Source of the DNA: Mycobacterium sp. Marseille-P9652
GTDB lineage: Bacteria > Actinomycetota > Actinomycetes > Mycobacteriales > Mycobacteriaceae
Assembly (NCBI RefSeq): GCF_902652685.1
Contig: NZ_CACRUY010000005.1
Coordinates: forward strand, 62,001-126,000
Direction: 5' to 3'
Length of the DNA stretch: 64,000 nt
The position numbers and the translations under genes are program-made. Below are positions 41,182-64,000 of the stretch, in pieces. The first letter of the stretch is position 1. Each line of letters begins with the position of its first letter. A model generated the notes under the pieces. It was not told the DNA's origin, made no database searches, and saw only the letters and a list, made by a program, of their open reading frames with translations.

Positions 41182-42849
41182 ATGTTCGGTTCGGGGAGCA
41201 AGGCCGTGCTGGCGGTCGCCTGTGCGACGGCGACGCTCATCGGCTGTGGTCGACACGTCGACCCGGGACCGCTGTCGGCGATGGCCTTCCCGGCCGTGCC
41301 GCCCACCGTTCAGGAGATCGCCAACCCGCTGCGCGGGCAGTACGAGGATCTGCTCAATCCTCTTTTCCCGCAGGGAAACCCGGCCGATCGGCAGTACCAG
41401 CCGTGGCCGGCGTCCTACGACGCCAGCCTGCGGGTGTCGTGGCGTCAGCTGCAGCCCACGGATCCCGGCTCGCTGCCGCCCGACGCCCCCGACGATCGCA
41501 AGTACGACTTCGGTGTGATCGACGACGCGCTGGCGAAACTGGGCAACCGCAACATGCGGTTGATCCTGGGCGTGTACTCCTACCGGTCCTGCTGCGGCGA
41601 CTCGTCCGGCGGCGACGGGAACATCGCGATACCCGACTGGATGCGCCCCGCCGCCACCACCTATCCGGGTGCGCCCGACGGCGGCGGGGTGGCGCAGGTG
41701 GTGCCGAACTGGAACGACCCGCGCTACCTCGACGGCTTCGGCCGGCTGCTCGCCGCGCTGGGCCGCCGATACGACGCCGACGAGCGGCTGAGCGTCTTCG
41801 AGTTCTCCGGATACGGCGACTTCAACGAGAACCAAGTGGCCTACCTGCGCGACAAGCTGGCCGCGGCGGGTCCGGCGCCGGACGACAGCGCCGCGGCGCT
41901 GGGGTACTACAGCCAGTACCGCGACCAGAGCATCACCGCGGCATCGATACGCCGGCTCGTCGCCGCCAACGCCGACGCCTTCCGGCACACCCAACTGGTG
42001 GTGACGCCACAGAATCCCGAGATCGTGCGTCAGCTGCTCGCCGACGACGTCACCAAGAAGCTGTCCGCGCCGGTGGGCATCCGCTCGGACTGCCTCGGCG
42101 TCCAGTCGCCGCTGCCCGGCTGGGCGGACACCGCCGACTCGCACTACGTGCGGACCAACGACGGCGTCGTCGATGCGCTGAAGCGGCGGCTCTCCGCGGC
42201 GCCGGTGATCACCGAGTGGTGCCCACTGCCCAGCGGGGCCGACCCGCGGTCGTACTACGAGAAGGGCTTGCACGACGTGGTTCGGTATCACGTGTCGATG
42301 ACGTCGAGCTCCAACTTTCCCGACCGCGACTTCGCCTCCGCAATGGACCGCACCTTGTATCCTCTGTGGGCGCAGGCCAATACGGAGGCCGGGTACCGGT
42401 ATTCCGTGGAGGCCCGCCCGGGATCGCAATCCAGACGGGGCAAGGTGGCGACGATAGGGGTGGTGTGGACCAACTACGGCTCGGCGGCCGCGACCGAGAA
42501 TTGGGCACCCGGCTACAAGCTGGTCGATTTCTCCGGCGCGGTGGTGCGGACCGTTCCCGCCACGGTGAACCTCAGGACACTGACGCCCGAGGACTCGAGC
42601 CAATCCCGCGAGGGGGCCGTCCCTACGTCGTCCACCGACGACGTGCACGTCGACGTGTCGGGGCTGGCGCCGGGCCACTACACGCTCTGCGCATCCGTCG
42701 AGTGGCAGCAGCACAAGCCGGGCGCATCGCACGCGGTCAACTACGGCCCGATGGCACTGGCCCGTTACGGCCGCGACGCCTCCGGGATGTATCCCATTGC
42801 CTCCCTTGACCTCCCGCGTGACGACGCGGTGCCGGCCGGCGGTCACTGA
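41182..42849 (+). CDS. Large lipoprotein, DUF4832/DUF4874-like (first copy)
   Basis: This 555-residue exported protein has signal peptide MFGSGSKAVLAVACATATLI and lipobox IGC with lipidation Cys22. The central part looks like a glycoside-hydrolase-type TIM barrel (YDASLRVSWRQLQP, RKYDFGVIDDALAKLGNRNM, LSVFEFSGYGDFNE, PVITEWCPL), followed by a beta-sandwich C-terminus. The fit to DUF4874/DUF4832 is from memory of that layout. Placed just before the chain-length and polymerase genes, it may trim or bind the polymer outside the cell (inference). M. tuberculosis Rv1006, in the same relative position after pabB, may be the ortholog. Confidence 0.7.
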   Translation: MFGSGSKAVLAVACATATLIGCGRHVDPGPLSAMAFPAVPPTVQEIANPLRGQYEDLLNPLFPQGNPADRQYQPWPASYDASLRVSWRQLQPTDPGSLPPDAPDDRKYDFGVIDDALAKLGNRNMRLILGVYSYRSCCGDSSGGDGNIAIPDWMRPAATTYPGAPDGGGVAQVVPNWNDPRYLDGFGRLLAALGRRYDADERLSVFEFSGYGDFNENQVAYLRDKLAAAGPAPDDSAAALGYYSQYRDQSITAASIRRLVAANADAFRHTQLVVTPQNPEIVRQLLADDVTKKLSAPVGIRSDCLGVQSPLPGWADTADSHYVRTNDGVVDALKRRLSAAPVITEWCPLPSGADPRSYYEKGLHDVVRYHVSMTSSSNFPDRDFASAMDRTLYPLWAQANTEAGYRYSVEARPGSQSRRGKVATIGVVWTNYGSAAATENWAPGYKLVDFSGAVVRTVPATVNLRTLTPEDSSQSREGAVPTSSTDDVHVDVSGLAPGHYTLCASVEWQQHKPGASHAVNYGPMALARYGRDASGMYPIASLDLPRDDAVPAGGH

Positions 42850-42850
42850 C

Positions 42851-44530
42851 GTGGCGCGGGGTGTCCGCCGCGCGCTGCTCGTCGTCGCCTGCGCGTCGCT
42901 GTTGCTCTGCGGGTGCGGCCGTCCGGCCGACCCCGGTCCGTTGGTCGCGCTGGACCGCCCGCCCATACCGATGAACGTCCAGGAGATTGCGAACCCCTTG
43001 CGCGGGCAGTACGAGGACCTGTTGGAACCGCTTTTCCCGCAACGCAATCCCGCGCAGAAGCGGTACCCGCCGTGGCCCGCCTCCTACGATGCCAGCGTGC
43101 GTGTCTCGTGGCGGCAGCTGCAGCCCACCGACCTCCGCAGGCTTCCCCCCGACGCGCCCGACGACCGGAAGTACGACTTCAGCGTCATCGACGATGCGCT
43201 CGCCAAGCTGGCGAGCCGGAACATGCGGTTGACGCTGCGCGTGTTCGCCTACAACTCCTGTTGCGACGCAACGTATCCGAACAACACCAACATCGCGATT
43301 CCGGAGTGGATGCGCTCGGCGGCCACCGACTATGTCGGGCCCGTGCGGTACTGGTGGGGCCCGGGTCTGACGCAGGTGGTGCCGAATTGGAACGACCCGC
43401 ACTACCTGGACGCCTTCGGCGACCTGCTGGCGGCGCTGGGCCGCCGCTACGACGGCGACGAGCGGCTCAGCGTGTTCGAGTTCTCCGGGTACGGCGACTT
43501 CAGCGAGAACCACATCGCTTTCCTGCGGGACAAGCTCGGTGCGCCGGGGCCCGCGCCGGACGACAGCGTGGCGGCGCTGGGGTATTACAGCCAGTTCCGC
43601 GACCAGAGCATCACCGCCGCCTCGGTACGCCGGCTGGTTGCCGCGAACGTCAGCGCCTTCCCGCACACCCAGCTGGTGACCACCGCGCTCAATCCCGAGA
43701 TCGTGCGTCAGCTGCTGGCGGACGACGTGACCGCGCGGCTGTCCGCGCCGGTGGGCATCCGGTCGGACTGCCTGGGCGTGTACGCGCCGCTGCCCGTCTG
43801 GGCCGAATCCGACCAGTCGCACTACGTCCAGACCAAGGATCCGCTCGTCGGCGAGCTCAAGGACCGCCTCGCCACGGCGTTGGTGATCTCCGAGTGGTGC
43901 CAGCTGATGAACGGCATCGATCCCCGGTCCTATTACGAGAAGGCGCTGCGCGACGTCATCCGCTACCACGTGGCGATGACCGCGAGTTTCAACTTCCCGG
44001 ATGCGGACTCCACCACCGCGATGGATCCGGCCCTCTACCTGTTGTGGGCCCAGGCCAACGTTTCGGCGGGCTACCGGTACTCGGTGCAGGCCCGGCGGGG
44101 ATCGGAGACAGTGCGCGACGGCGTGGCGTCGGTGGCGGTGACCTGGACCAACTACGGCTCGGCGGCCGCCACGGAGAAGTGGGTTCCCGGCTACCGGCTG
44201 GTGGATTTCTCCGGAACGGTGGTCCGGACCGTGCCGGCGACGGTCAACCTGCGAACGCTGGTCCACAACGAATCCGGCGACTCCTCGGCGAAGGAACCGG
44301 TTCCGTCGTCGGCCGGCGAATCGATCCGCGTCGACGTGGCCGGATTGCCGCCCGGGCAGTACACGCTTCGGGCGTCCGCGGATTGGCAGCAACACAAGCC
44401 CGGCGCCACTCAGACCGTCAACTATCCGCCCATGCAGCTGGCTCGCGACGGGCGCGACGAATCGGGCTCGTACGCGATCGCGACGCTCGATATTCCGCGC
44501 GCCGGGCTCACCCCCGCCCCGGGACAGTGA
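42851..44530 (+). CDS. Large lipoprotein, DUF4832/DUF4874-like (second copy)
   Basis: This protein of about 559 residues is clearly a tandem duplicate of the preceding gene. Long blocks such as VQEIANPLRGQYEDLL, DAPDDRKYDF, VFEFSGYGDF and DPRSYYEKALRDVIRYHV are shared. The GTG start lies one base after the previous TGA; an upstream ATG at 42797 is less likely. The signal ALLVVACASLLLCGC contains a lipobox. Differences cluster in the loop after the second strand (NSCCDATYPNNTN versus RSCCGDSSGGDGN), which may alter ligand choice. It belongs to the same transcription unit. Confidence 0.72.
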   Translation: MARGVRRALLVVACASLLLCGCGRPADPGPLVALDRPPIPMNVQEIANPLRGQYEDLLEPLFPQRNPAQKRYPPWPASYDASVRVSWRQLQPTDLRRLPPDAPDDRKYDFSVIDDALAKLASRNMRLTLRVFAYNSCCDATYPNNTNIAIPEWMRSAATDYVGPVRYWWGPGLTQVVPNWNDPHYLDAFGDLLAALGRRYDGDERLSVFEFSGYGDFSENHIAFLRDKLGAPGPAPDDSVAALGYYSQFRDQSITAASVRRLVAANVSAFPHTQLVTTALNPEIVRQLLADDVTARLSAPVGIRSDCLGVYAPLPVWAESDQSHYVQTKDPLVGELKDRLATALVISEWCQLMNGIDPRSYYEKALRDVIRYHVAMTASFNFPDADSTTAMDPALYLLWAQANVSAGYRYSVQARRGSETVRDGVASVAVTWTNYGSAAATEKWVPGYRLVDFSGTVVRTVPATVNLRTLVHNESGDSSAKEPVPSSAGESIRVDVAGLPPGQYTLRASADWQQHKPGATQTVNYPPMQLARDGRDESGSYAIATLDIPRAGLTPAPGQ

Positions 44531-44570
44531 CGTGGTGAGCGGCGAACCATTTCGATTTCCGGCCACACGA

Positions 44571-44665: not shown

Positions 44666-46126
44666 ATGGATTTCCGTACCTTTGTCCGGATACTCCTCGC
44701 GCACTGGAAGCTCGCCGTCGGCGCGCTGCTGGCGTGCACGATCGGTGCCGCCGCACTGACGGCGGTGCAAACAAAGCACTACCAGTCGTCGGCCACGATC
44801 CTGATCTCCTTCCCGGGCGCCACCGACCTGACCGAGCTGTACAACGGCACGCTGGCGGCCCAGGAACGGCTGTCGTCGTACGCCCAGATCGCGGGCGGCC
44901 GCACCGTGGCCGAACGCGCGGTGAACCAGGTGCAGGCGCCCATGAGCGCCGACTACCTGGTGACCCAGACCCAGGTCAAGTACACCGCGAAGTCCCTGCT
45001 GTTCACGATCACCGTCAAGGACACCGATGCCAGGCGCGCCGCGGCGCTGGCCGGGGCGATGGCGGATCAGTTCGCGGCGATCGTGCCGACGCTGGGAGCC
45101 ACCGTCGGGTCCACCGGTCCTTCGGCTCCCGCCACCGCCGGGCCGCGGACCGAACCGGGCGAGACGACCCCGGCCCCCGGTCAGCCGCCCGAAGCCGCCC
45201 CCGGGCAGCCGGCCGGCAAGACGCTGGCGGTGGCCCGGGCGAAGGTGGTTGAACCGCCCCGGGTACCCGACCACCCGATCACGCCGGTGCCGGCCCGCAA
45301 CATGGTGATGGGCTTCGCCGCCGGACTGCTGCTCGGCATCGCCGTGGCCCTGGTCCGCGAGGCCACCGACCGCAGCGTGCGCACGCGCGAGAAGCTGGAG
45401 GAGCTGTCCGGGCTGCCGACCCTGGCCGAGCTGCCCGGAAAGCGCGGCGCGGCACCGAGATTCGGTACGGACGTCACGTTCGACGACGGTGTGCGCGGCA
45501 TGCGGGCCCGGCTGCGCCGAGCCGTCGGACCCGACGCCCGCCGGTTGCTCCTGGCGGCCCCTTTCGGCGGCGAGGGAACGACGACGACGGTGCTGAACCT
45601 CTCGCGGGCGCTCGCCGAGATCGGCGAGGACGTGCTGCTCGTCGAGGGTGACACGCGCCGGCCGGTGGTCGCGGGCCTGCTGAACGTCGAATCGGGGGAG
45701 GGCCTGGCCAACGCGCTGGGCAACCCCGACATCGCCGCGGAGGCCGTGAAGCCGACCGCGATCGCGAACCTGTTCATCCTCGCCGCTCGGTCGGCCCGCC
45801 GCGAGGCCCTGCCGTGCAGCGCGTATGCCCCCGAGGCGATCGACCGGGTGCTCGGCGAGCTGTCGTCGCGGTTCGACCGCGTGGTGGTCGACGGTCCACC
45901 GATCCTGGCCACGGCCGACAGCGTCCTGCTGGCCGGCGCCGTGCAAGCCACGGTGCTGGTGGTCCGGGCGAGGCGCACGACCGTCGACGAGCTCACCGAC
46001 GCCTTGACCGCGCTGCGCGCGGGCGGCGCGAACGTCGTCGGCACCGTGCTGACCGACGCCCGGCCGTCGGTGCGCAGCCGGGCCTCGGCACGCGCGTACC
46101 GCGGAAAGGTGCGGGGGACGGCGTGA
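44666..46126 (+). CDS. Wzz/Wzc-like polysaccharide chain-length protein with ATPase domain
   Basis: This 486-residue protein is of the co-polymerase type. A first transmembrane helix (about 13-33) leads to an extracytoplasmic Wzz-like domain, a Pro/Ala-rich linker (about 150-190) and a second helix (about 213-230). A cytoplasmic BY-kinase-like ATPase follows. Its P-loop near residue 300 reads APFGGEGTTTTVLNL: the lysine normally before Ser/Thr is a threonine. Walker A' LLVEGDTRRPVV and Walker B FDRVVVDGPPIL are kept. The C-terminus has only one Tyr (SARAYRGKVRG) instead of a Tyr cluster. It likely sets polymer length, possibly without kinase activity. GTGA overlap with the next gene. Confidence 0.85.
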   Translation: MDFRTFVRILLAHWKLAVGALLACTIGAAALTAVQTKHYQSSATILISFPGATDLTELYNGTLAAQERLSSYAQIAGGRTVAERAVNQVQAPMSADYLVTQTQVKYTAKSLLFTITVKDTDARRAAALAGAMADQFAAIVPTLGATVGSTGPSAPATAGPRTEPGETTPAPGQPPEAAPGQPAGKTLAVARAKVVEPPRVPDHPITPVPARNMVMGFAAGLLLGIAVALVREATDRSVRTREKLEELSGLPTLAELPGKRGAAPRFGTDVTFDDGVRGMRARLRRAVGPDARRLLLAAPFGGEGTTTTVLNLSRALAEIGEDVLLVEGDTRRPVVAGLLNVESGEGLANALGNPDIAAEAVKPTAIANLFILAARSARREALPCSAYAPEAIDRVLGELSSRFDRVVVDGPPILATADSVLLAGAVQATVLVVRARRTTVDELTDALTALRAGGANVVGTVLTDARPSVRSRASARAYRGKVRGTA

Positions 46127-47598
46127 TCTTCGAGCTGCGGGGCCGACATCGCCTGGCGATGGACGGAGCCGCGCTTGCCCTCTTCCTGTTCGGGTGCTTC
46201 GTGTTCGGCGTGCTCTCGGTGCGCCGAACGACCGAGGGCGTGCTGCTCATCGCGGCGCTGTTCTGCCTGGTCGTGTACTGGGTGAAGCCCGAAGGGATGA
46301 CGGCGGTCATGCTGTTCGGGGCGTTCGCCGCGCTGCCCGAAGGGCTGCACATCGGCAAGGTGTTCGGGCCGGTGGCGGTCTACGCCTACCAGGTGGCCGC
46401 GATCCTCGCGATCTGCTACCTGCTCCCGATCGTCAAGCTCCGGTCCTACGACTGGCTGCTACCGGGGATGTTCGCGTTCACGGTCGTGGTCTTCACCGTC
46501 GTCGGGTTCCAGATGGGGCACGACGCCACGATGGTGATGCGCGAATCGACGACCTTGTTCGAAATGATCGTCGGGTTCGTGCTGGCGTTGCTGCTCGTGT
46601 ACGGCGGCTACGTCCGCTGGATCATCCGCGTGATGGTGCCCATCCTGTGGTTCTCGGCGGGCATGGCGATCGTGAGTTCGTTGCACGCCATCCGGCTGGC
46701 CGGGCGCGCCGAAAGCCTGGAAGAGTCGACCGGCGCGGGCCAGGCCCTGCGCATCGTCCTGTCCACCCAGACACCGGCGACCGCCGTGCTCAGCGGACTC
46801 GTCGCCGCCGCGATCATCGGCCGCGTCAGGCCGGCCGTCTACCTGTCCCTCGGGCCGCCCGCGCTCGTCATCTCGCTCCTGTCGTTCGCCCGCAACACGC
46901 TGATCGCCGTGGCCGTCGCGGCCCTGGTCGCCTTCCTCACCAGCTTCGGCTGGGCGGCCCTGCGCCGGACGGCCATGGTGGCCGTCTTCAGCGCCGCGGT
47001 CTTCGCGGTGACGGTGCCGGGGTCGCTGTTCGTGCTGCAGCATTCCGAGGCGGGGGCGTGGCTCAGCGACCAGTTCACCGCGTTCAACCAGCGCGTGCTG
47101 GGCGGGGTTTCGGCGAGTGCGCTGGCCACCGACGAATCCACGCTCGACCGGCTGCGGGAGGTCGCGCGGCTCAACGAGGCCATCGCCCAGGCGCCGGTGT
47201 TCGGGCACGGCCTCGGCTACGCCTACCAGCTGCCGTCCGGCAAGGACCCGAACTCCTTCGCCTGGAAGCTGGGGCCCACCTACTCGCACCTCTTCTACCA
47301 GTGGTTCCTGGCGAAGGCCGGGGCGGTGGGCCTGGCGGCGTTCGCGTGGTTCGCGCTGACGCCGGTGGTTCGTGCGGTGCGCTGCGCGACGGTGCCGGCC
47401 AAGATCAGCGCGGCCGTCAGCGCGGGCCTGCTGGCGATCACCGCCGTCTGGCCGTTGCCGGAAATGCCGATGGACGCCTTGGCGCTGGGGCTGTGCCTGG
47501 GGGCCGCGATGGGATTCGCCGGCCTGCGGCGCCGGGAGCGCGAAGCGGCTCCCGCCGGCGCTTCGCCGGCTCAGGCCGGGGCGCCGGGTGTCCGCTGA
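46123..47598 (+). CDS. Wzy-like O-antigen/polysaccharide polymerase
   Basis: This 491-residue membrane protein has about 12 hydrophobic helices and a large loop near residues 310-390 (APVFGHGLGYAYQLPSGKDP, YSHLFYQWFLAKAGAVGLAA) that matches the O-antigen ligase/polymerase signature. It would link repeat units on a polyprenyl carrier outside the membrane. The GTG at 46123 overlaps the TGA of the chain-length gene, and its own TGA overlaps the next ATG (TGATG), so the genes are tightly coupled. Ligase and polymerase activities cannot be told apart from sequence. Confidence 0.82.
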   Translation: MIFELRGRHRLAMDGAALALFLFGCFVFGVLSVRRTTEGVLLIAALFCLVVYWVKPEGMTAVMLFGAFAALPEGLHIGKVFGPVAVYAYQVAAILAICYLLPIVKLRSYDWLLPGMFAFTVVVFTVVGFQMGHDATMVMRESTTLFEMIVGFVLALLLVYGGYVRWIIRVMVPILWFSAGMAIVSSLHAIRLAGRAESLEESTGAGQALRIVLSTQTPATAVLSGLVAAAIIGRVRPAVYLSLGPPALVISLLSFARNTLIAVAVAALVAFLTSFGWAALRRTAMVAVFSAAVFAVTVPGSLFVLQHSEAGAWLSDQFTAFNQRVLGGVSASALATDESTLDRLREVARLNEAIAQAPVFGHGLGYAYQLPSGKDPNSFAWKLGPTYSHLFYQWFLAKAGAVGLAAFAWFALTPVVRAVRCATVPAKISAAVSAGLLAITAVWPLPEMPMDALALGLCLGAAMGFAGLRRREREAAPAGASPAQAGAPGVR

Positions 47599-48617
47599 TG
47601 GCGCCCCTCGCGGTCACCCACGTGGGGCCGGACATGTACAGCTTCGGCGGCACGCAGTCCGTCATCCGGGTGATCCGCGACAACCAGATCGGCGCCGACG
47701 AGATCCGCGTCCTCTCGACGTGGGACGGGCGCCGGCACCTGAAGAACCTGCTCCTCACCGGGGGCGCGGGGACGGCGCTGGCCCGAACCCCGCGCACCAC
47801 GATCGTGCACTTTCACATGTCCAACGGCGGAGCGTGGCTGCGTGAGGGACCGCTGATCCGGCTGGCCGACGCACGCGGACTGCGCGTCGTCATCACGATC
47901 CACGGATCCGACTTTCACCGGTTCGCCTGGTCCCACAAGCATTTCGTGGGCGCGATCCTGAGTCATGCGGACCACCTGATCCTGCTGTCGGAGGAGGCGC
48001 GCGCCGCGGCCGCGTGGGTGGCGCCCTACGTCCCCACCTCGGTGGTGGCCAACCCGATCCCGATCGACCGCGACGCCCCCGGCGCGAGCACGACGCCTCC
48101 CGTCGTGCTGTTCGCCGGGACCATCGGCTTACGCAAAGGGGTCGACAAGCTCGTCGCGGCGTGGCGGCTGCTGCTCGCCGAGGGCATCGAAGGGCAGTGT
48201 CGCATCGTCGGTCCCATCGACGACTACTCCCCGCCGCCAACCGAACGCCTGTCGGTCGAACCGCCGGTCCACCCCGACCGGGTGCGCGAACTGCTCCGGA
48301 CCGTGCGGGTGGTGACGCTGCCGTCGTTCGCCGAGGGCATGCCGATGATCCTCACCGAGGCGCTGGCCGGCGCGCGCCCGATCGTGGCGACGCCCGTCGG
48401 CGGCACGACGGAAATCGCCTCCGACCCGCACATGCTCGTGCCCGTCGGCGACGTCCCCGCGCTGGCCCGCGGCATCGCCCGTTACCTGCGCCACCCGGAC
48501 CTCGCCGAGCGCGACGGGCTGCGCGGCCAGCAGCACATCGCGGCCACCCGCAGCCCCGAGGTCATCGGCGCGGAGCTCCGGCGGATCTACGAGAGCTGCC
48601 TCGATGCGGCGAGTTGA
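47598..48617 (+). CDS. Glycosyltransferase family 4 protein
   Basis: This 339-residue GT-B glycosyltransferase shows an N-terminal acceptor domain with VTHVGPDMYSFGGTQSVIRV and a C-terminal donor domain with VVLFAGTIGLRKGVDKLVAA. The GT4 donor signature FAEGMPMILTEALAGARPIV contains the conserved E-x7-E. It adds a sugar from a nucleotide donor to a growing lipid-linked oligosaccharide on the cytoplasmic side. It is coupled to the polymerase gene by TGATG and overlaps the next gene by 14 bases. The donor sugar is unknown. Confidence 0.87.
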   Translation: MAPLAVTHVGPDMYSFGGTQSVIRVIRDNQIGADEIRVLSTWDGRRHLKNLLLTGGAGTALARTPRTTIVHFHMSNGGAWLREGPLIRLADARGLRVVITIHGSDFHRFAWSHKHFVGAILSHADHLILLSEEARAAAAWVAPYVPTSVVANPIPIDRDAPGASTTPPVVLFAGTIGLRKGVDKLVAAWRLLLAEGIEGQCRIVGPIDDYSPPPTERLSVEPPVHPDRVRELLRTVRVVTLPSFAEGMPMILTEALAGARPIVATPVGGTTEIASDPHMLVPVGDVPALARGIARYLRHPDLAERDGLRGQQHIAATRSPEVIGAELRRIYESCLDAAS

Positions 48618-49560
48618 GCTCCCGGGACCGGGGCTGACGGTCAGCGCGGTCGGCTTCGGGTGCGGCGGCCTGCTGCAGTCGCCGTCGCGCAGGGAGCGGA
48701 TGGCGGTGCTGGGCGCCGCCGTCGCCAACGGCATCACCCACTTCGACACCGCGCGCATGTACGGCCTCGGACGGGCGGAGTCGGAGCTCGGGGCGTTCCT
48801 GCGCACGGTCGACCGCGACTCCGTGACCATCGCGACCAAGTTCGGCATCAACGTGGGCGGCGCCGTGGCGAGGCTCGCGCGATTCCAGGCGCCGGCGCGG
48901 GCGCTGCTCCGCGCGGCGCCGGCGCTGCGCCGCGCCGTCAAGCGGCGGCAGGGATCGCCGGAGGCACCGCGGGTCTACGACGCGGCGGCCGCCGCGCGCG
49001 GCCTGGACCAGAGCCTGGCGGCGCTGGGCGTCGACCACGTCGACATCCTGTTCGTGCACGGCCCGCGGCCCGGCGACACGGTCGCGGCCGGCGAGTTGCG
49101 CGAGTTCTTCGAACGCGCCCACCGGCAGGGCAAGATCCGGGCGTGGGGCGTCTCGCAGGACGAGGGGCTCGACACCGACTTCGCCGCGGAGTTCGCCCCC
49201 CAGGGGGTGAGCCAGGTGCGCGGCGACCTGCTCGGTCCGCCGCCGCGCCCGGCCGATCTCGTCTTCGGGGTGCTCAACCGGTCGTATGCCACCTTGTCGG
49301 GCGCGCTGCACGCCGACGCGCGGCTGGCGGCCCACTGGCGCGAGGCACTCCAGCTCGATCCGCTGGCCGCCGGTGCGCTGCCCAAGCTGATCCTCGGCTC
49401 GTCCGCGGCGGCGACGGGGTGCCGCGCCATCCTGTACAGCACCACCCGTCCGCGCCGCGTCGCCGAGGCGGCGGACGCCGTGGACGCCCCGGTGGACGCC
49501 GACACCCTGACCCGATTCCTGGCTTTGGTCAAGGAGTTTCGAGAGGGCACCGCCGCGTGA
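48604..49560 (+). CDS. Aldo/keto reductase family protein
   Basis: This 318-residue NADPH-dependent reductase has the full catalytic tetrad: Asp48 and Tyr53 in THFDTARMYGLG, Lys79 in IATKFG, and His152 in ILFVHGP. The protein starts inside the preceding glycosyltransferase gene and overlaps the next start by GTGA. Its position beside a GMC oxidoreductase within a polysaccharide operon suggests oxidation/reduction of a sugar or alditol residue (inference). The C-terminal NADPH loop is somewhat shortened compared with classic members. Confidence 0.83.
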   Translation: MRRVELPGPGLTVSAVGFGCGGLLQSPSRRERMAVLGAAVANGITHFDTARMYGLGRAESELGAFLRTVDRDSVTIATKFGINVGGAVARLARFQAPARALLRAAPALRRAVKRRQGSPEAPRVYDAAAAARGLDQSLAALGVDHVDILFVHGPRPGDTVAAGELREFFERAHRQGKIRAWGVSQDEGLDTDFAAEFAPQGVSQVRGDLLGPPPRPADLVFGVLNRSYATLSGALHADARLAAHWREALQLDPLAAGALPKLILGSSAAATGCRAILYSTTRPRRVAEAADAVDAPVDADTLTRFLALVKEFREGTAA

Positions 49561-53130: not shown

Positions 53131-53341
53131 GTTACTCAACCCTCCTCAGCGAAAGGACAATGCCGAAGCTACGGCACCGCGCGCGCGGGGAGCAAGCCCG
53201 CGCCGCCGATGTCGCCGGCGAGCGGGAAGTCATTGGGGCGGCGGGACGTTCGGACGTTTCTCGGTACCGGCCGCGACGTGGCGTGGTAGCTTTGATCGTC
53301 CCGCATCGGTTTGCTCGAGAGACGCCCCGGATGACCGCCTG

Positions 53342-54229: not shown

Positions 54230-54236
54230 GGCTGAT

Positions 54237-56195: not shown

Positions 56196-57679
56196 GCCAA
56201 CAGCGGGTTCGGGCGCGACGCGGTGCGCAACGACGCCAGGTCCGACAAACGCAGCGGGCCGAACGCGGCGCTGACGACCAAGTAGGCCGCGGCGGCGGCG
56301 GCCAGAACGAGCACCACGTGCTGACCCGAGAGCAGCAGCGTCACGACGACGCTCGCCCCCGTCGGAATCAGCAGCCGCACCAGGAACCTCACCGGCGTAC
56401 GGTAACCGCACCGCCGGCGCAGCCACCAGCTGCCGACGACCATGTTGAAGAATTCCGTGCACACCAGCGCGACGCCGCGGCCGACGGCGCCGAACCGACC
56501 CGCGAGGGCGACGTTGAGCGCGACGTTGAGCACGAGCGTGGCCATCGTCAGCCAGAACAGCACGCGCTGGTGATGGCTGGCGACCAGGCCCTGTCCCAGG
56601 GTGCCGCTGACGAACCGCAGGGCGGCCGCGACGAACAACAGCGCCAGCACCGGCGTTCCGCGCGCCATGAACGCCTTGTCACCGAACAACCCGATCAGCG
56701 GGCCGGCCAGCAGCGCGCCGACCACCGCGACGGGGACCGCCACGAAGTACATCAGCTCGACGCTGCGGCGCAGGAAGCCGGCGAAGGCGGCGACGTCCCG
56801 CGCGAACAGCTCGTTGGCCGTCGAGAGCGTCGACTTGAGGAAGATCAGCGACACCACGATCGTGTTGAACGCGATCGTGAAGGCCAGGCCGTACACACCG
56901 ACCTCCGACTGCGTGCTCAGCAGCGAGAGGATGACACCGTCGGCGCGGCAGTACATCAGCCCCACCACCAGAAAACCGATGAGCGGCAGGCTTTCCCGCA
57001 GCAGGTCGGCGGCCTCGCGGGGCGCGAAGACGGGGCGCACCGAGATGTGCCGCGTGGCCGCGGCGCCCTGGATCACCAGCTGCAGCGCGGGCGGGATGAG
57101 TTGCGCGACGGCGAACCAGACGACGTCGGCGCGCGCCGCGACCAGGCAGGCCACCATGCCCAGGGCGGCCAGGCGGGCGGCGACGTCGGAGATTGCGACC
57201 GCGGTGAACCGCACGGTGGCGAGGAACACCGGCTCGAACCGCGTCGTCATGGTCTGCATGAGCAGAGCCCCCGACAGCACGACGAGCATGACGCGCACGT
57301 TGTGGTCGTGGTAGACGAACAGCCCCGACACCGCGGCCAGCGCGGCCAGCGGAAGGCAGTACACCAGGGCCATGCCGCTGTTCACCCGCACCAGCCGCTC
57401 GAGGTCGCCTCGCCCGGACGTCACGCGGCGCACGATCACGGTGGCGATACCGAGGTCGGCGAGGCTCGCCCACATGGCGATGAACATCACCGCGATGGAC
57501 AGCTGGCCGTAGTGCCCGGGTCCCAGGTAGCGCGCGGTCATCGCCACCGAGATCACTGAGGCCAGCATCCCCAGCGCCCGGCAGATCAGCTGGATGGAGA
57601 ACGCGTGGGCCATCCGCGCAACCGGGACCGACGAACCGAGCGCGCCGGGTGCCGTCGGCTCAGTCATGGCCGGTGGCAC
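56192..57679 (-). CDS. Wzx-type polysaccharide flippase
   Basis: This protein of about 495 residues has 12-14 hydrophobic helices and belongs to the MATE/MOP polysaccharide exporter group. Typical features are ARYLGPGHYGQLSIAVMFIA near the start and VGVYGLAFTIAFNTIVVSLI in the middle. It would flip the lipid-linked repeat unit across the membrane. The GTG at 57679 abuts the stop of the sugar transferase gene; an ATG at 57667 (MTEPTAPGAL) with AGGTG nine bases upstream is a good alternative start. The next gene overlaps by ATGA. Confidence 0.88.
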   Translation of the reverse strand: MPPAMTEPTAPGALGSSVPVARMAHAFSIQLICRALGMLASVISVAMTARYLGPGHYGQLSIAVMFIAMWASLADLGIATVIVRRVTSGRGDLERLVRVNSGMALVYCLPLAALAAVSGLFVYHDHNVRVMLVVLSGALLMQTMTTRFEPVFLATVRFTAVAISDVAARLAALGMVACLVAARADVVWFAVAQLIPPALQLVIQGAAATRHISVRPVFAPREAADLLRESLPLIGFLVVGLMYCRADGVILSLLSTQSEVGVYGLAFTIAFNTIVVSLIFLKSTLSTANELFARDVAAFAGFLRRSVELMYFVAVPVAVVGALLAGPLIGLFGDKAFMARGTPVLALLFVAAALRFVSGTLGQGLVASHHQRVLFWLTMATLVLNVALNVALAGRFGAVGRGVALVCTEFFNMVVGSWWLRRRCGYRTPVRFLVRLLIPTGASVVVTLLLSGQHVVLVLAAAAAAYLVVSAAFGPLRLSDLASLRTASRPNPLLA

Positions 57680-59311
57680 CTAGTACGCCCCGTGGCTCGT
57701 CAATACGGCTTTCACGGTCTTGGCGATGATCATCAGGTCACCCGACATGGACCAATTGTCGACATACGACAGGTCCAGCCGCACGGATTCTTCCCAAGAA
57801 AGATCGGAACGGCCGCTCACCTGCCACAGCCCGCTGACGCCCGGCTTCACCAGCAGCCGCCGGTGGACGTCGCCGTCGTAGTTCTCGACCTCGCGCCGCA
57901 GCGGGGGGCGCGGGCCGACGACGCTCATGTCGCCCTTGAGCACGTTGATGAACTGAGGCAGCTCGTCGATGCTGAACCGGCGCAGCATCCGGCCGACGGG
58001 AGTGACGCGGGGGTCCTGGCGCAGCTTGAACAGCACGCCGCCCGCGCCTTCGTTCATCGACATCAGGTGGTCGAGCTGCTTGTCCGCCCCGTCGGTCATC
58101 GTGCGGAACTTGAGCATCGTGAACGGCTTGCCATCAATGCCGATGCGCTCGGAGTGGTAGAAGACCGGACCCTTGCTCGTCAGCTTCACGGCGAGGGCGG
58201 CCACCAACAGGACCGGCGCCGTCGCGATCAGGGCGGCCAGTGAGAAGCAGAAGTCGAAAGCCTGCTTCTGGAACCGCTGCGTGCCCTCGTATTGCGGCTT
58301 CTCGACGTGCAGCAGGGGCACGCCGGCGGTGAGGCGCAGGGCCAGCCGCGCCTCCGCGACGTCCATCACGCCGGGCGACACCACCAGGTCGATGTCCATG
58401 GTCTCCAGCTGCCACATCAGCTCCCTGATGGCGTGCATGCCGAAGTCGGTGGTCTGCGCGATGGCGACCGTGTCCGCGCCGCACCTCTCGATCGCCGCCG
58501 CCGCGTAGGTTTCGTCACCGAGAATCGGGACCCGGCGGCCGCCGACCTTCAGCGTGTTGCCGCGCGGCCCCCCGTAGCCGGGGATGCACACGCCGACTAC
58601 GACGCACCCGTCACTGGGATTGCGGCCGAACTCGTGCGCGAGGTGGGACACCGCCTGCCGGTCCCCGATCGCCAGCACCCGGGTCAGGCAACGGCCGCGA
58701 GCGCGCTGACGGCGGATGTACGTGCGCCACAGGCTGCGGCTGGTCAGCAGACCCAAGGTGCCGGCGGGCAGCGCGATCGCCAGGTAGCCGCGTGCGAGGT
58801 CGACCTTTGCCAGCATCGTGACCATCGCGATGATGCCGAACGTCCAGAACGACGCCGTGCCGATGCGACGGTACTCCTCGATCCCGGCGCCGATTACCCG
58901 CGGCGACCGCGTCTGCATGATGGCCAGCGACGAAAGCCACAGCGCGGCGAAGATAAATGAGTACAGCGTGATGACGGGGTCCGAGTAGCCCGACGTGTTC
59001 TGGAAGTCGCCGAACCGGACCGATTGAGCCAGGATTACCGCGGCGAACACGATCACCGCGTCGCTGATGCGGAGCCAGCGTGAGTACTGGTACTGCCAGC
59101 GCCGCAGGGTGGTGGCACCGGACAACGGTGCCGGACGGGCGGGGGCCGGCACCCCCGCGGTGCGGACGCGCGGCATGGGCGTCGGCGTCGATTTGATCGG
59201 TGGAATCGCCTGCGGCAGAGCGACCTTCGCCGTGAGGCGGGCCGCCGGGGCGATCAGCCGTCCGGCGGCAACCGCCTTTGACTTCCGGGGAATCACCTGC
59301 TCGGTCGTCAT
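57680..59311 (-). CDS. Polyprenyl-phosphate sugar-1-phosphate transferase (WbaP/ExoY-type initiating enzyme)
   Basis: This 543-residue membrane enzyme starts repeat-unit assembly. A basic, proline-rich N-terminal region (about 75 residues) precedes four or five transmembrane helices (about 80-200), a Rossmann-like CoA-binding domain and another helix (about 350-375). The catalytic bacterial sugar transferase domain follows, with PVFYHSERIGIDGKPFTMLK, LRRFSIDELPQFINVLKGDM and SVVGPRPPLRREVENYD. It transfers glucose- or galactose-1-P (inferred) to the lipid carrier. It follows a PPE gene by nine bases. Confidence 0.93.
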   Translation of the reverse strand: MTTEQVIPRKSKAVAAGRLIAPAARLTAKVALPQAIPPIKSTPTPMPRVRTAGVPAPARPAPLSGATTLRRWQYQYSRWLRISDAVIVFAAVILAQSVRFGDFQNTSGYSDPVITLYSFIFAALWLSSLAIMQTRSPRVIGAGIEEYRRIGTASFWTFGIIAMVTMLAKVDLARGYLAIALPAGTLGLLTSRSLWRTYIRRQRARGRCLTRVLAIGDRQAVSHLAHEFGRNPSDGCVVVGVCIPGYGGPRGNTLKVGGRRVPILGDETYAAAAIERCGADTVAIAQTTDFGMHAIRELMWQLETMDIDLVVSPGVMDVAEARLALRLTAGVPLLHVEKPQYEGTQRFQKQAFDFCFSLAALIATAPVLLVAALAVKLTSKGPVFYHSERIGIDGKPFTMLKFRTMTDGADKQLDHLMSMNEGAGGVLFKLRQDPRVTPVGRMLRRFSIDELPQFINVLKGDMSVVGPRPPLRREVENYDGDVHRRLLVKPGVSGLWQVSGRSDLSWEESVRLDLSYVDNWSMSGDLMIIAKTVKAVLTSHGAY

Positions 59312-59320
59312 CGGGCGGCC

Positions 59321-60496
59321 CTATGCGTATCCGCCGGCCGGCGGCCGCGTCATGATCGTCGGGACGATGCCGTAGCGCGGCCCCAGCGACTTGGTCGCCG
59401 ACGCCAGCCGCGGCAGCGAGCCCAGCATGGTCGGGGGCACGGCCGGCGTGCCGAGGGCGTTGGGCAGCGCGGCGGCGGCGCTCACCGGCGCCGTCGGGAT
59501 CACGCTGGTCCAGCTGGCGGGCACGGACAGGGGACCCAGCGCGCTGGCGGTGCCGAGGCTGCCGAACACGCTGGAGCCGAGCGCTCCGGCCGAGCCGGCC
59601 GCGCTCGCCACTCCCGACGCCGCCCCCGCGGCGGCCGCGGCAACCCCGTCGCCGGCGGCCTTGGCCAGACCTTGGACAGTCTGGGCGATCCCGAGCACCG
59701 AGGACAGTCCGTACAGCGGCGTCGCCCCGGCCATCAGCCAGGTCGGCAGGGAGTAGGGCAGGTTGGTCGTGAAGCTCGAGATCGTCGACGACAGGGTGCT
59801 GGACAGGGCCGCCGAGGAGGTCGAGGTGCCCAGCATCGCCGTGGCCGGCGTCGTGAGCGCCTGCAAGGTGGCCGGGACGGAGGACACCAGGCTCGCCAGG
59901 GAGAACTGGCTCTCCGCCGAGACGGAGGCCGCCTGGGTGACCGCCGCGGCCTGCTGGCCCAGGCCCGCCGGGCTGGTGACCTCCGGCGGCGAGGCGAACG
60001 GCGTGACCTCGGTGGCCGCCGCCGCGTGCGCCGCGTACTGGTACATGGCCGCCGCGTCCTGGGCCCACATCTCGCCGTATTCGGCTTCGGTGGCCGCGAT
60101 GGCGGGCAGGTTCTGGCCGAAGAAGTTGGTGGCGATCAGCGCCGCGAGTTGGGCCCGGTTGGCGGCGACAGCGGGCGGGGGCACGGTCATGGCGAACGCG
60201 GCCTCGTAGATCTCCACGGAGAGCCGCGCGTGGCTGGCCGACTCGGCGGCCCGCGCGGCGGCCCCGGACACCCACGCGACGTACGGTCCGAACGCCGATG
60301 CCATGGCCAGCGACGTCGGGCCCATCCAGCGGTTGGTCACCAGTCCGGCGATCACCGACTTGTACAGGCTGGCGGCGGTGTGCAGTTCCGCGGCCAGGCC
60401 GTCCCACGCTACGGCAGCCGCGACGAGCGATCCCGGGCCGGGACCGGCATACATTCGTGCGGAGTTGATCTCCGGCGGGAGCGCACCAAAGTCCAC
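59321..60496 (-). CDS. PPE family protein (PPE-SVP type)
   Basis: This 391-residue protein begins [20 protein letters not shown], with the PPE motif at residues 7-9 and the WDGLAAEL and [20 protein letters not shown] helices of the roughly 180-residue PPE domain. The C-terminal part is Ala/Ser-rich and has GPLSVPASW, the SVP subfamily signature. It ends [11 protein letters not shown] proteins are exported by ESX systems, often with a PE partner, but no PE gene is adjacent here. It is the first gene of the minus-strand polysaccharide operon, nine bases before the initiating transferase. Confidence 0.93.
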
Positions 60497-60990: not shown

Positions 60991-61662
60991 ATGACGACCC
61001 ACTCGACCGACGGACGCGCGGACGCGACACGGCGCCAGATTCTTCGCGCCGCCGCGCACCAGTTCGCGCGCCGCGCCTATCACGAGGTGGGTCTCGACGA
61101 CATCCTCGCCGATGCCGGACTGACCAAGGGCGCGATGTACTTCCACTTCAAATCGAAGTACGCGCTGGCGGTGGCGATCATCGATCACGAGACATCAGAC
61201 GGCGCCATCGTCGTGGAAGACCTCCTGAGCAGGGGTTTGTCGGGACTCGAGACCCTGATCGACTTCTCCTACCTGATCGCCGTCCAGGACATCACGACCG
61301 ACGAGGTCAGGGCCGGGCTCAACCTCATCGAATCGGTCGGCCTGTCCGAGGGGCTGCAGGAGCGGCTGCTGGGCAGCTGGGCGAAGGCCCTGGCCGGGGT
61401 CGTCGAGCAAGCCATCGCCGAGGGCGACATCGGCGAACAGTGGGACCCGCAGGATGTGGGGCGCTTCATCGTGTCGCTGCACATGGGCCTGCGGAAGACC
61501 AGCTCCCTCGATCAGCCGGAACAATTTCTGCTCGACCTGGAGAAGAGCTGGGCGCTCATCCTGGCGGGCATCCTGCAACCGGAGCGCGCTGACTATTTCC
61601 GGCAGTTCCTCCGGCGGCGCGCGTCGCTCGCGATCAACGCGAATTCCCACGGGGAGCACTAG
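60991..61662 (+). CDS. TetR-family regulator, gamma-butyrolactone-receptor-like (first)
   Basis: This 223-residue repressor has an N-terminal helix-turn-helix (RRQILRAAAHQFARRAYHEV, then LDDILADAGLTKGAMYFHFK). The HTH closely resembles ArpA/ScbR-type receptors (TKGALYFHF). The ligand domain of about 150 residues ends ADYFRQFLRRRASLAINANS. In Streptomyces such proteins sense gamma-butyrolactone autoregulators; whether this ligand exists in mycobacteria is unknown. The second TetR is a paralog 114 bases downstream with the same YFRQFLRR ending. Likely targets are itself and the divergent PPE/polysaccharide operon. Confidence 0.87.
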   Translation: MTTHSTDGRADATRRQILRAAAHQFARRAYHEVGLDDILADAGLTKGAMYFHFKSKYALAVAIIDHETSDGAIVVEDLLSRGLSGLETLIDFSYLIAVQDITTDEVRAGLNLIESVGLSEGLQERLLGSWAKALAGVVEQAIAEGDIGEQWDPQDVGRFIVSLHMGLRKTSSLDQPEQFLLDLEKSWALILAGILQPERADYFRQFLRRRASLAINANSHGEH

Positions 61663-61724
61663 CGCCTGACGAGGACCGGCCGTTTTCGAGCGCCGAGCGG
61701 GCGCGGGCCGCGGTCGTTTACGTT

Positions 61725-61758
61725 AGTCTCTCGCCGGGCACGTTGCCCGGCCGAGACT
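61725..61758. promoter_or_regulatory. 34-base hyphenated palindrome before second TetR
   Basis: AGTCTC (61725-61730) pairs with GAGACT (61753-61758), and inside it CCGGGCA (61734-61740) pairs with TGCCCGG (61744-61750). The element lies 18 bases before the ATG of the second TetR gene. Its left arm is part of the GTTAGTCTC that is also found upstream of the first TetR. An operator is likely; a terminator for the first TetR is the alternative. Confidence 0.55.
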
Positions 61759-61776
61759 TCCGGGAGGACACAAGCG

Positions 61777-62490
61777 ATGGCGCGTCAGGTTCGATCTGAA
61801 GCCACTCGGCGGAAGATCTTCGACGCGGCAATCGATGTGTTCGGCGACGTCGGATTCGCCGCCGCCGGCTGGGGGACGATCATCGAGCGCACCGGCATGA
61901 CGAAGGGCGCCCTCTACCACCACTTCGATTCGAAGGAAGCGCTGGCATCGGCCGTCATCCAGGAGGGTTCGCAATCGCTGCTGAACGCGTTCCGGAACGT
62001 CTGCGGGGCGTCGTCGCCGGGTCTCGAGAACATGGTGCACGGCACATTCACCGTCGTGAAAACGCTGAATTCGGACAAGATGGCCCGCACGGCCGTGCAA
62101 CTGGCGTCCGGGCTGAGCGGGTACAACGAGGCGGTCTCGCGCTTCTACGCGAGCCTGGTGGCCGAGATGGCCGACCAGGCCCGGCGCGCGGTCGCCGAGG
62201 GCGATGTGCGCGACGACGTCGACCCCGAAGTGGTCAGTGAGTCGATCGTCGGCGCCGTCTTCGGAACGCTGTTGCTTTCGGACGCGGTGTCGCGCAACGG
62301 CGCGGCCCCGAACGGTGACGCGGACGAGCCCACCGTGCGGCTGCGGCACCTCTGGGAGCTGTTGCTCCCCGGCGTCGTCTCGGACGCCTCACTGGCGTAC
62401 TTCCGGCAGTTCCTGCGCCGGGAGGCCGTGCGCCACACCCCGGTCGCCGCCGCCCGCGAGGGTGCCGGCGCGGAGCCCACTACCACCTAG
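61777..62490 (+). CDS. TetR-family regulator, gamma-butyrolactone-receptor-like (second)
   Basis: This 237-residue paralog of the preceding regulator has HTH residues RRKIFDAAIDVFGDVGFAAA and IIERTGMTKGALYHHFDSKE. The ligand-binding half ends ASLAYFRQFLRREAVRHTPV. The N-terminus MARQVRSEATRRKIFDA is the standard entry to this family. Shared C-terminal wording with the first copy, also visible at DNA level, shows tandem duplication. A GGGAGGA lies about ten bases before the ATG, within reach of the large palindrome, so autorepression is likely. It may sense a different ligand from the first copy. Confidence 0.87.
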   Translation: MARQVRSEATRRKIFDAAIDVFGDVGFAAAGWGTIIERTGMTKGALYHHFDSKEALASAVIQEGSQSLLNAFRNVCGASSPGLENMVHGTFTVVKTLNSDKMARTAVQLASGLSGYNEAVSRFYASLVAEMADQARRAVAEGDVRDDVDPEVVSESIVGAVFGTLLLSDAVSRNGAAPNGDADEPTVRLRHLWELLLPGVVSDASLAYFRQFLRREAVRHTPVAAAREGAGAEPTTT

Positions 62491-62576
62491 CAGTCCCTGA
62501 CCGCCCGCTCGAGGCGCGCCGCGCAGTGATTTTCGATTGATTTCGGCGACCTACTCGAAGACTGCATACTGTTGCC

Positions 62577-64000
62577 GTGAAGTACCTGAAGTATGTGGCC
62601 AGAGTTGTCGCCGTGGCCGCTGTGCTCGCCGCCTCGACCCTCAGCGCCCCGCCGTCCTGGGGGGCGCCCGGCGACCCGGTGACGTCCGCGGACTCGACGA
62701 CCCTGTCCCTGGCCGATCTCGGGTCTTCGCCCATGCTGGAATTCTGGGGGCTCACCAGCAGCCAGCAGCTGACCGTGCCGGTGCTGCACGGGCTGACACC
62801 GACGGCACTCAACGCGACCGTCGAGCTGCCCATCAACCTGCGGTCGGGGCTGCTCACCGTCACGCAGGGCGAACGCACTCTTGCCCGGATCAACCTGCCG
62901 ACGGCCGATCAGACGCCGATCGTCATTCCGCTCACGGGGGCGGAGGTGGACGACGACTGGCTGACGGTGACCATGCGCGCGTACCTCGTGCCCCAGGAGG
63001 GATTCTGCCTCTACCCGGAGAGCCCGTTGCGCCTCGTCGGCGGGACGATCAGCTACACCGGGGTCGAGCAGCCGCCCAACACGGTCGCCCATTTCCTGCC
63101 GCCGGTGCTGCGCAAGCTGAGCATCTATCTGCCGCAGTCGCCGTCGCCCGCCGAATCCGACACGGCCGTCCGGCTGGCCACCTCCGCCGCCGCCCACTAC
63201 GGCAAACAGACTCCCGACATCGTGGTGGTGCCCCTCGGGGAGGGGCAGGCGGCCCCGCCCGCACCGCCGCAGCCCATGGAGCGCCAGATCGTCGTCAAGG
63301 AGGGGCCGGACAACGGGATGTCGATCCAGGGCTCCGGCGGAGTGCCCTACCTGTTGATGTCGGGGCCCCTCGGGCAGGCCGACGAATCCGACATCGCCAT
63401 GCTGTTCAACGACCTGTCGCAGCTGGCCGTCTCGACCAAGGCCTCGGTCGAGACGCTCAAGCCGAACGTGCAACTGCCCGGTGACACGGCGTCGATGCGC
63501 GACGTAGGGCAGCCGTTCGCGAACGCGACGTCGCTGCAGCCGCGCGTGTCGATCGGCTTGGACCAGACGCGGTTCGGCAGATCCTTCCACTCGGTGCGGG
63601 TGCACCTCGTGGGCTCGTACACCCCGACGCCCGGCAACATCGGCGGCCAGATCACCGCGGCGGTCGGCGCCGAGACCATCGACCACTGGGCGACCGACGG
63701 CCACGGCAACATCGACCGCTGGATCGACGTGCCCGACCGGTTACTGCAGCGCTACACCAGCCTTGATCTGGTGCTCGACGTCGCGAGCAACGTCGGTCAT
63801 TGCGGCGACTTCTACACCGCCGGGCCGGGAAATCAGCTCCTGACGCTGAACATCAACGGCGACACCACCATTCAGACGAGCCCCGCCTCGCCGCCCATAC
63901 CCGACGGCTTCCAGTCCGTGCCGCAGACGTTGATGCCGCGCGTCCAGGTGGGGATCGAACCGCACTCGCTGATCGACACGATCCGGGCGATCAACATCCT
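62577..64000 (+). CDS. BcsB-like cellulose synthase regulatory subunit, 3' end missing
   Basis: The frame is open from a GTG at 62577 to the right edge, about 474 codons. The first residues form a Sec signal peptide (VKYLKYVARVVAVAAVLAAS, ending PPSWGA). The mature part has QEGFCLYPESPLRLVGGTIS, VAHFLPPVLRKLSIYLPQSP and NVGHCGDFYTAGPGNQLL, which resemble the periplasmic carbohydrate-binding and flavodoxin-like parts of BcsB. BcsB guides a glucan out of BcsA, a c-di-GMP-activated synthase. bcsA is not in the window and would be expected to the right. The start lacks a clear ribosome site. It ends incomplete because the window ends. Confidence 0.72.
   Translation, partial: MKYLKYVARVVAVAAVLAASTLSAPPSWGAPGDPVTSADSTTLSLADLGSSPMLEFWGLTSSQQLTVPVLHGLTPTALNATVELPINLRSGLLTVTQGERTLARINLPTADQTPIVIPLTGAEVDDDWLTVTMRAYLVPQEGFCLYPESPLRLVGGTISYTGVEQPPNTVAHFLPPVLRKLSIYLPQSPSPAESDTAVRLATSAAAHYGKQTPDIVVVPLGEGQAAPPAPPQPMERQIVVKEGPDNGMSIQGSGGVPYLLMSGPLGQADESDIAMLFNDLSQLAVSTKASVETLKPNVQLPGDTASMRDVGQPFANATSLQPRVSIGLDQTRFGRSFHSVRVHLVGSYTPTPGNIGGQITAAVGAETIDHWATDGHGNIDRWIDVPDRLLQRYTSLDLVLDVASNVGHCGDFYTAGPGNQLLTLNINGDTTIQTSPASPPIPDGFQSVPQTLMPRVQVGIEPHSLIDTIRAINI

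What the first reader, a model, noticed from the sequence alone, without database searches (positions are those of the whole stretch)
41182..64000. Complete Wzx/Wzy-type exopolysaccharide assembly locus in a mycobacterium
Two convergent operons together supply an initiating sugar-1-P transferase (57680-59311), a Wzx-like flippase, a Wzy-like polymerase and a Wzz/Wzc-like chain-length protein. They also hold three glycosyltransferase proteins with four catalytic domains, two methyltransferase-like proteins and an AKR/GMC redox pair. Almost every junction overlaps by ATGA, GTGA or TGATG, so they are built as units. Mycobacteria are not usually credited with such a pathway; M. tuberculosis, to my knowledge, has nothing like it at this position after pabB. 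The gene set predicts a secreted or surface repeat-unit polymer with methylated and oxidised sugars.
Basis: partly seen in the sequence, partly recalled or inferred. Interest (0 to 1): 0.85.

Follow-up and report, generated by a model that had tools for sequence, protein, structure and literature searches.

The report
Mycobacterial polysaccharide locus with PPE protein
Many mycobacteria carry a gene set that looks able to build a repeat-unit surface polysaccharide, and in one large group of them a gene for a PPE protein, a family reported only from mycobacteria, nearly always travels with it.

Summary
The locus is real. On the pabB-metG interval lie an initiating phosphoglycosyltransferase (PHPT), Wzx-like flippase, Wzy-like polymerase, Wzz/Wzc-like co-polymerase, three glycosyltransferases and modifying enzymes. 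It is not a lone case: the flippase matched 92 of 297 sampled Mycobacterium genomes, and published gene names and peptides place the locus in M. avium subsp. paratuberculosis. My paper searches found none that treats it as one system.

(1) A PPE gene lies 9 nt upstream of PHPT; in relatives it is upstream and co-directional wherever both were seen (32 of 32 named loci; 70 of 70 unnamed, overlapping species). Its close orthologue was found in 70 genomes, all with the flippase, and in 0 of 205 without. A second Wzy-type cluster in this genome also begins PPE-PHPT. (2) A DcpA-like c-di-GMP enzyme and two lipoproteins head the + operon. (3) Rv1006 of M. tuberculosis belongs to that lipoprotein family and looks like a remnant.

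Corrections: 4 of 12 junctions overlap, not almost all; one gene of the - set lies on the + strand; the co-polymerase lacks the Walker-A lysine in 24 of 24 rows. Boldest reading: the PPE protein carries the polymer across the mycomembrane.

The parts
39215..41170 (+). GAF-GGDEF-EAL c-di-GMP enzyme (gene caller prefers start 39296)
   Evidence: Pfam; GGDEF and EAL motifs intact in 5 of 5 rows; beside a D gene on the same strand in 19 of 20 chosen neighbourhoods
41182..42849 (+). D1, DUF4832-like protein, lipobox read by eye
   Evidence: Pfam E 6.5e-5, 23.2 bits, below the 29.2 cut-off
42851..44530 (+). D2, paralogue of D1 (69% identity)
   Evidence: Pfam E 8.4e-4, 19.6 bits, below cut-off; D family in 105 of 297 genomes
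44666..46126 (+). Wzz/Wzc-like co-polymerase with degenerate P-loop
   Evidence: no Walker-A lysine in 24 of 24 rows
46123..47598 (+). Wzy-like polymerase or ligase
   Evidence: Wzy_C; about 12 hydrophobic segments
47598..48617 (+). GTa, GT4 glycosyltransferase
   Evidence: (in the longer frame scanned)
48700..49560 (+). aldo-keto reductase (start may be 48604)
49557..51257 (+). GMC oxidoreductase, weakly pyranose-oxidase-like
51254..52297 (-). GTb, GT4 glycosyltransferase
52309..53130 (-). methyltransferase (Methyltransf_23)
53342..54229 (+). conserved protein, no family hit; methyltransferase-like motif by eye only
54237..56195 (-). GT2-GT4 fusion glycosyltransferase
56192..57667 (-). Wzx-like MOP flippase
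57680..59311 (-). initiating polyprenyl phosphoglycosyltransferase (PHPT)
59321..60496 (-). PPE protein, PPE-SVP subgroup
60991..61662 (+). TetR regulator 1
61837..62490 (+). TetR regulator 2 (start may be 61777)
62577..64000 (+). 655-aa exported protein, continues to 64544 beyond the window; no family hit

Best explanation
The locus assembles a repeat-unit surface polysaccharide by a Wzx/Wzy route. PHPT puts the first sugar-phosphate on the polyprenyl carrier; the GT2-GT4 fusion, GTb and GTa extend the unit; the methyltransferase and AKR/GMC enzymes modify it; Wzx flips it; Wzy polymerises it under the Wzz-like co-polymerase, whose kinase part is degenerate. In one large clade a PPE protein was recruited into the cassette and acts after polymerisation, at the mycomembrane or cell surface, in export or retention of the polymer. 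The D lipoproteins bind or trim polymer outside the membrane, and the DcpA-like enzyme tunes output through c-di-GMP. Shown: gene content, frames, conservation, linkage, joint absence of PPE and core where flanks are kept. Inferred: every catalytic step, and the roles of PPE, D and c-di-GMP.
For: Family matches for each assembly step. Flippase in 92 of 297 genus genomes. PPE upstream of PHPT, same strand, in 32 of 32 named and 70 of 70 unnamed loci with both, species overlapping. PPE hits of 313 bits or more in 70 genomes, all Wzx+, 0 of 205 Wzx- (only up to 6 PPE candidates per genome were scored). On the Wzx tree the PPE label needs 3 changes against a shuffled mean of 19.1. Three loci that keep GGDEF-EAL, D and TetR genes lack both core and PPE, and nest among carriers. 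PPE median dN/dS 0.17. Second PPE-PHPT-Wzy cluster in the same genome. In M. avium subsp. paratuberculosis MAP0963c-MAP0966c are down together in a regulator mutant.
Against: No polymer, transcript or enzyme activity is shown. Wzy_C is shared with ligases. No Wza-like exporter was hit. PPE is absent from 21 of 92 Wzx+ loci, 3 of them in the clade of 74 that holds all PPE+ rows (L092, L125, L151), so the core can do without it. No PE partner was seen at the locus. PPE51's authors argue against a porin-like channel for that PPE. MAP0952 and MAP0966c were reported changed in different conditions and in opposite directions.
Confidence: 0.7

Rival explanations
1. The locus makes a short oligosaccharide that a Wzy_C-type ligase moves to a lipid or protein (a lipooligosaccharide or glycoprotein route), not a polymer.
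For: Pfam's Wzy_C family is described as O-antigen ligase and covers ligases as well as polymerases (family breadth recalled).
Against: A Wzz-like co-polymerase gene abuts the Wzy gene, and the second cluster also holds a Wzz match (E 5e-4, below cut-off) with Wzy_C. No polyketide or MmpL gene was seen among the locus genes scanned.
Confidence: 0.18
2. The PPE gene is a passenger: it sits beside the locus by descent and works in something else, while the core makes the polymer without it.
For: 21 of 92 Wzx+ loci lack it. In L092 and L151 another gene, acyltransferase-like by eye, lies at the corresponding edge. One origin plus inheritance could give the linkage.
Against: Joint absence with the core while flanking TetR, GGDEF-EAL and D genes stay; purifying selection; a second, distant PPE before the genome's only other PHPT.
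Confidence: 0.25
3. The locus is decaying in this strain and makes nothing.
For: The RmlC-like gene of sister locus L034 is missing here, best own match 34% identity. D-only remnants exist (L164-L167). PPE falls below 500 bits in a few relatives, some with two-frame hits (L045/L104, L064/L139, L160).
Against: All window frames are open; dN/dS is low among close relatives (the window itself was not in those groups); genes of the MAP locus are expressed and regulated.
Confidence: 0.07

Closest known systems
Wzx/Wzy-dependent capsule and exopolysaccharide loci (E. coli group 1 capsule and colanic acid, Gram-positive CPS; recalled)
   Same: PHPT, flippase, Wzy_C protein, Wzz-like co-polymerase, several GTs
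   Different: no Wza-like exporter hit, degenerate kinase site, linked PPE protein, DUF4832-like lipoproteins
MAP0952-MAP0970 of M. avium subsp. paratuberculosis
   Same: same slot and order of named genes: kinase MAP0952, flippase MAP0963c, sugar transferase MAP0964c, epimerase MAP0965c, PPE MAP0966c; peptides of MAP0954, MAP0963c and MAP0970 match GTa, Wzx and the 655-aa protein
   Different: a transposase beside the PPE; an epimerase between PPE and sugar transferase; the full MAP sequence was not seen, and MAP0966c is equated with the window PPE by position only
PPE10 (capsule integrity, ESX-5; PMC4900558, abstract)
   Same: PPE protein linked to a surface glycan layer
   Different: not described there, as far as I read, as part of a polysaccharide gene set
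Gram-positive Pel clusters (PMC7112168, passages)
   Same: a DUF4832 gene or a dual diguanylate cyclase/phosphodiesterase next to polysaccharide genes
   Different: Pel is synthase-dependent, not Wzx/Wzy

Membership tests
Wzx/Wzy-dependent polysaccharide system | initiating phosphoglycosyltransferase | tested here: met
   catalytic segment conserved in 105 rows
Wzx/Wzy-dependent polysaccharide system | MOP-type flippase | tested here: met
Wzx/Wzy-dependent polysaccharide system | Wzy polymerase | tested here: inconclusive
   Wzy_C over cut-off, but ligases share the family
Wzx/Wzy-dependent polysaccharide system | Wzz/PCP co-polymerase | tested here: met
   Wzz over cut-off
Wzx/Wzy-dependent polysaccharide system | outer-membrane polysaccharide exporter (Wza/OPX) in diderms | tested here: inconclusive
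   no such family among locus proteins scanned; whole genome not searched for it
Wzx/Wzy-dependent polysaccharide system | repeat-unit polymer | not testable with these tools
   needs chemistry
BY-kinase (Wzc/CpsD) | Walker-A lysine | tested here: not met
   absent in 24 of 24 rows
BY-kinase (Wzc/CpsD) | tyrosine-rich C-terminal tail | tested here: not met
   window tail has one Tyr; tails of most other rows shown look alike by eye
PPE family, SVP subgroup | PPE domain and PPE-SVP C-terminal region | tested here: met
   PF00823 E 1.8e-64, PF12484 E 5.4e-11; best PDB match PPE15
PPE family, SVP subgroup | type VII secretion, usually with a PE partner | not testable with these tools
   no PE gene was called at the locus; secretion needs experiment
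DUF4832 (D1, D2, Rv1006) | score over Pfam's gathering cut-off | tested here: not met
   23.2 and 19.6 bits against 29.2: a distant relative at most
DcpA/Rv1354c-type c-di-GMP enzyme | GAF-GGDEF-EAL order with intact motifs | tested here: met
   EAL part 374 bits to PDB 5yrp, which I recall as M. smegmatis DcpA; orthology to Rv1354c not tested

The most novel reading that the evidence does not exclude
The PPE protein is the missing mycomembrane step of a Wzx/Wzy pathway: a dedicated, probably ESX-secreted exporter or anchor for the polymer, a mycobacterial stand-in for Wza. The second PPE-PHPT-Wzy cluster of this genome would make it a rule: each glycan assembly line of this kind brings its own PPE.
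Probability: 0.3. Interest if true: 0.92.

Novelty: new variant of a known kind. Interest (0 to 1): 0.72.

Why it matters
How mycobacteria send large polymers across the mycomembrane is open, and most PPE proteins have no known job (both recalled). A PPE gene tied to a polysaccharide assembly set, twice in one genome, gives a PPE protein a specific testable task. It would add a Wzx/Wzy polymer to the surface chemistry of many mycobacteria, including M. avium subsp. paratuberculosis, suggest an output for c-di-GMP there, and explain Rv1006 of M. tuberculosis as the leftover of a lost locus.

Tried and rejected
BcsB-like identity of the 655-aa protein (62577-64544): suggested by eye, not borne out by profile comparison with E. 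coli BcsB (probability 4%), nor by Pfam or PDB sequence search. Structure models of D2 and of the 655-aa family were too poor to search (mean pLDDT 38.8 and 33.4), so no fold search was run. PDB sequence searches with the D family and with the 53342-54229 gene gave no credible hit. The - strand frame 53132-54250 was rejected as a gene. A tyrosine-kinase role for the co-polymerase was rejected on Walker A. PMC3087520 lists Rv1006 as a horizontally acquired glycosyl transferase (passage), against my reading as a remnant; the D family in 105 of 297 genomes favours an older presence but does not exclude transfer of the locus. Paper searches showed no paper that treats this locus as a Wzx/Wzy system; the library holds open-licence papers only and I saw only the listed part of each result. 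The flippase of the second cluster is inferred: its candidate (466 aa, very hydrophobic) has no Pfam hit. The chance figure is post hoc and crude. The dN/dS figures use stop-to-stop frames and so include some upstream DNA; the groups were my choice. Named and unnamed loci share species, so the 32 and the 70 are not independent.
Full report
What is in the sequence. The window is C5:62001-126000 of a 5.70-Mb, 128-contig genome. Gene calling and family searches give, on the + strand, a GAF-GGDEF-EAL protein, two DUF4832-like lipoproteins (D1, D2), a Wzz/Wzc-like co-polymerase, a Wzy-like protein, a GT4, an aldo-keto reductase and a GMC oxidoreductase; on the - strand, a PPE protein, PHPT, a Wzx-like flippase, a GT2-GT4 fusion, a methyltransferase and a GT4. 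A conserved + strand gene at 53342-54229 interrupts the - set. The two sets converge at 51254-51257. Of 12 junctions 4 overlap, 6 are 1-82 nt apart, one is 135 nt and one 1106 nt.

Where it sits. Upstream lie pabB and an oxidoreductase. Downstream, beyond two TetR genes and a 655-aa exported protein, lie a polysaccharide deacetylase gene, a methionyl-tRNA synthetase gene and an rpfB-like gene. In M. tuberculosis this slot has Rv1005c pabB, Rv1006 and Rv1007 (PMC5393005 and PMC1660551, passages; that Rv1007c is the methionyl-tRNA synthetase is recalled). A 36-residue segment of Rv1006 printed in PMC8006519 (passage) matches D1 (score 97), D2 (85) and the D genes of four other genomes, L164-L167 (111-135), against a shuffle maximum of 64. 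In those four stretches the only window-locus genes found are pabB, its two neighbours and D, and these genomes had no flippase match. So Rv1006 is best read as the last remnant of this locus in M. tuberculosis; PMC3087520 instead lists it as a horizontally acquired glycosyl transferase (passage).

How widespread it is. The flippase has a match in 92 of 297 genus genomes and in 32 named loci, among them M. scrofulaceum, M. nebraskense, M. colombiense, M. europaeum, M. palustre and M. interjectum. Around a core of PHPT, Wzx, GT2-GT4 and GTb the rest varies: some loci share AKR, GMC and the methyltransferase with the window; L053, scanned as an example, has PIG-L, epimerase, RmlC-like, WecG-type and C-methyltransferase genes. 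That this is serotype-like diversity is inference. The GT2-GT4 fusion matched in 32 of 301 family genomes, 6 of 31 genera, so the core is probably older than the PPE link. D matched in 105 of 297; 81 of these are Wzx+, 24 are not, and 11 Wzx+ genomes have no D match (Fisher p 2e-38, not corrected for kinship).

Prior literature. In M. avium subsp. paratuberculosis MAP0952 is named an exopolysaccharide biosynthesis tyrosine-protein kinase (PMC3416667, passage). MAP0963c flippase (under 2-fold), MAP0964c sugar transferase, MAP0965c epimerase, MAP0966c PPE and a transposase are down in a MAP3773c mutant (PMC11026511, section). MAP0966c is placed between Rv1006 and Rv1007 and called absent from M. 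tuberculosis (PMC1660551, passage). Peptides of MAP0954, MAP0963c and MAP0970 match GTa, Wzx and the 655-aa protein (PMC10861761, passages). A MAP0957c peptide matched no window protein, but is exact in frames of at least ten sister stretches (list cut at ten), as expected of the variable part. MAP0952 went up in acid-nitrosative stress and MAP0966c down inside macrophages, so the two halves need not be co-regulated. Four paper searches showed no paper describing the set as one Wzx/Wzy system.

The PPE gene. It is 9 nt upstream of PHPT here. In 32 of 32 named loci and 70 of 70 unnamed loci with both genes it is upstream on the same strand; the two sets share species. In several loci looked at, one or more sugar-nucleotide or other genes lie between. 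Searching the genus with PPE alone, hits of 313 bits or more are in 70 genomes, all Wzx+, none of the 205 Wzx-; the next paralogue is at 285 bits (up to 6 candidates per genome were scored, so a miss is possible). On a 92-row Wzx tree (quick method) 71 rows are PPE+ and the label needs 3 changes against a shuffled mean of 19.1. The 21 PPE- rows are 14 low-identity rows in one group, then L077, L088, L089 and L162, and three rows within the clade of 74 that holds all PPE+ rows: L092, L125 and L151. In L092 and L151 an acyltransferase-like gene lies near that edge (name by eye). Three genomes (L168, L169, L172) keep GGDEF-EAL, D and TetR genes but show neither core nor PPE; on a TetR tree they need two changes and nest among carriers, L169 inside a well-supported set of eight. 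Median dN/dS is 0.17 for PPE, 0.14 Wzx, 0.22 PHPT, 0.29 GTb, 0.33 GT2-GT4 and 0.18 TetR1, in six chosen groups of relatives.

A second PPE-headed cluster. The genome has two PHPT matches and 36 PPE matches. The second PHPT, on contig C9, follows a PPE gene with 423 nt between; the proteins are 33% and 45% identical to those of the window over 285 and 411 residues. On the same strand follow an epimerase, a GDP-mannose-dehydratase-like gene, a Wzy_C protein, a double GT4, a GT2, a GNAT protein, a short Wzz-like protein (below cut-off), a GT4, a GH5-like protein and an acyltransferase, among genes without hits. The second PHPT matched 21 of 297 genomes: 24 places, 23 outside this genome. Only the region of G261 has the cluster, again with PPE before PHPT; the other 19 have neither PPE nor the cluster. 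G261 is also one of the three genomes without the first core. So the second pairing is seen in two genomes and is not a property of this PHPT subfamily as such.

Mechanism. The steps from PHPT to Wzy follow from family knowledge. The co-polymerase lacks the Walker-A lysine in 24 of 24 rows, so control by tyrosine phosphorylation as in Wzc is unlikely. GGDEF and EAL motifs are intact in 5 of 5 rows, and the gene lies beside a D gene on the same strand in 19 of 20 neighbourhoods chosen from the 81 genomes with both D and Wzx; c-di-GMP control is plausible, not shown. D proteins carry a lipobox by eye, and its Cys (C22) is invariant in 16 rows. DUF4832 genes occur in a Klebsiella oxytoca polysaccharide cluster (PMC6258164, passage) and in Gram-positive Pel clusters, where in bifidobacteria a dual diguanylate cyclase/phosphodiesterase takes that place (PMC7112168, passages); D itself is only a sub-threshold match to DUF4832. 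For the PPE, precedents are PPE10 in capsule integrity (PMC4900558, abstract) and PPE51 in uptake and membrane integrity, whose authors argue against a porin-like channel (PMC12607722, abstract and discussion). MAP0966c is in a surface-shaving list that also holds cytosolic proteins (PMC2859856, section), so that support is weak.

Verdict.

Noticed in passing
L194:12946-19901 and L195:1-10432 (own genome, contig C9): A second Wzy-type glycan cluster headed by a PPE gene and the genome's only other PHPT.
   Followed up: partly
window 62577-64000, continuing in L170 to 64544: A 655-aa protein with signal-like start and C-terminal hydrophobic segment, no family hit; a homologue was found in 47 of 91 fetched Wzx regions, inside the locus in some, and the MAP0970 peptide matches it.
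   Followed up: partly
window 44666-46126: Wzc-like protein with conserved loss of the Walker-A lysine (24 of 24 rows), although its MAP counterpart is annotated as a tyrosine kinase.
   Followed up: partly
G075 and G115: Two 3.3-Mb single-contig genomes keep only weak D matches (E 2e-30 and 1.9e-43), perhaps decayed copies in leprosy-type genomes (guess from size).
   Followed up: no
L197-L215: Relatives of the second PHPT (64-71% identity) occur without the second cluster's other genes in 19 regions, so this transferase has another setting there.
   Followed up: no
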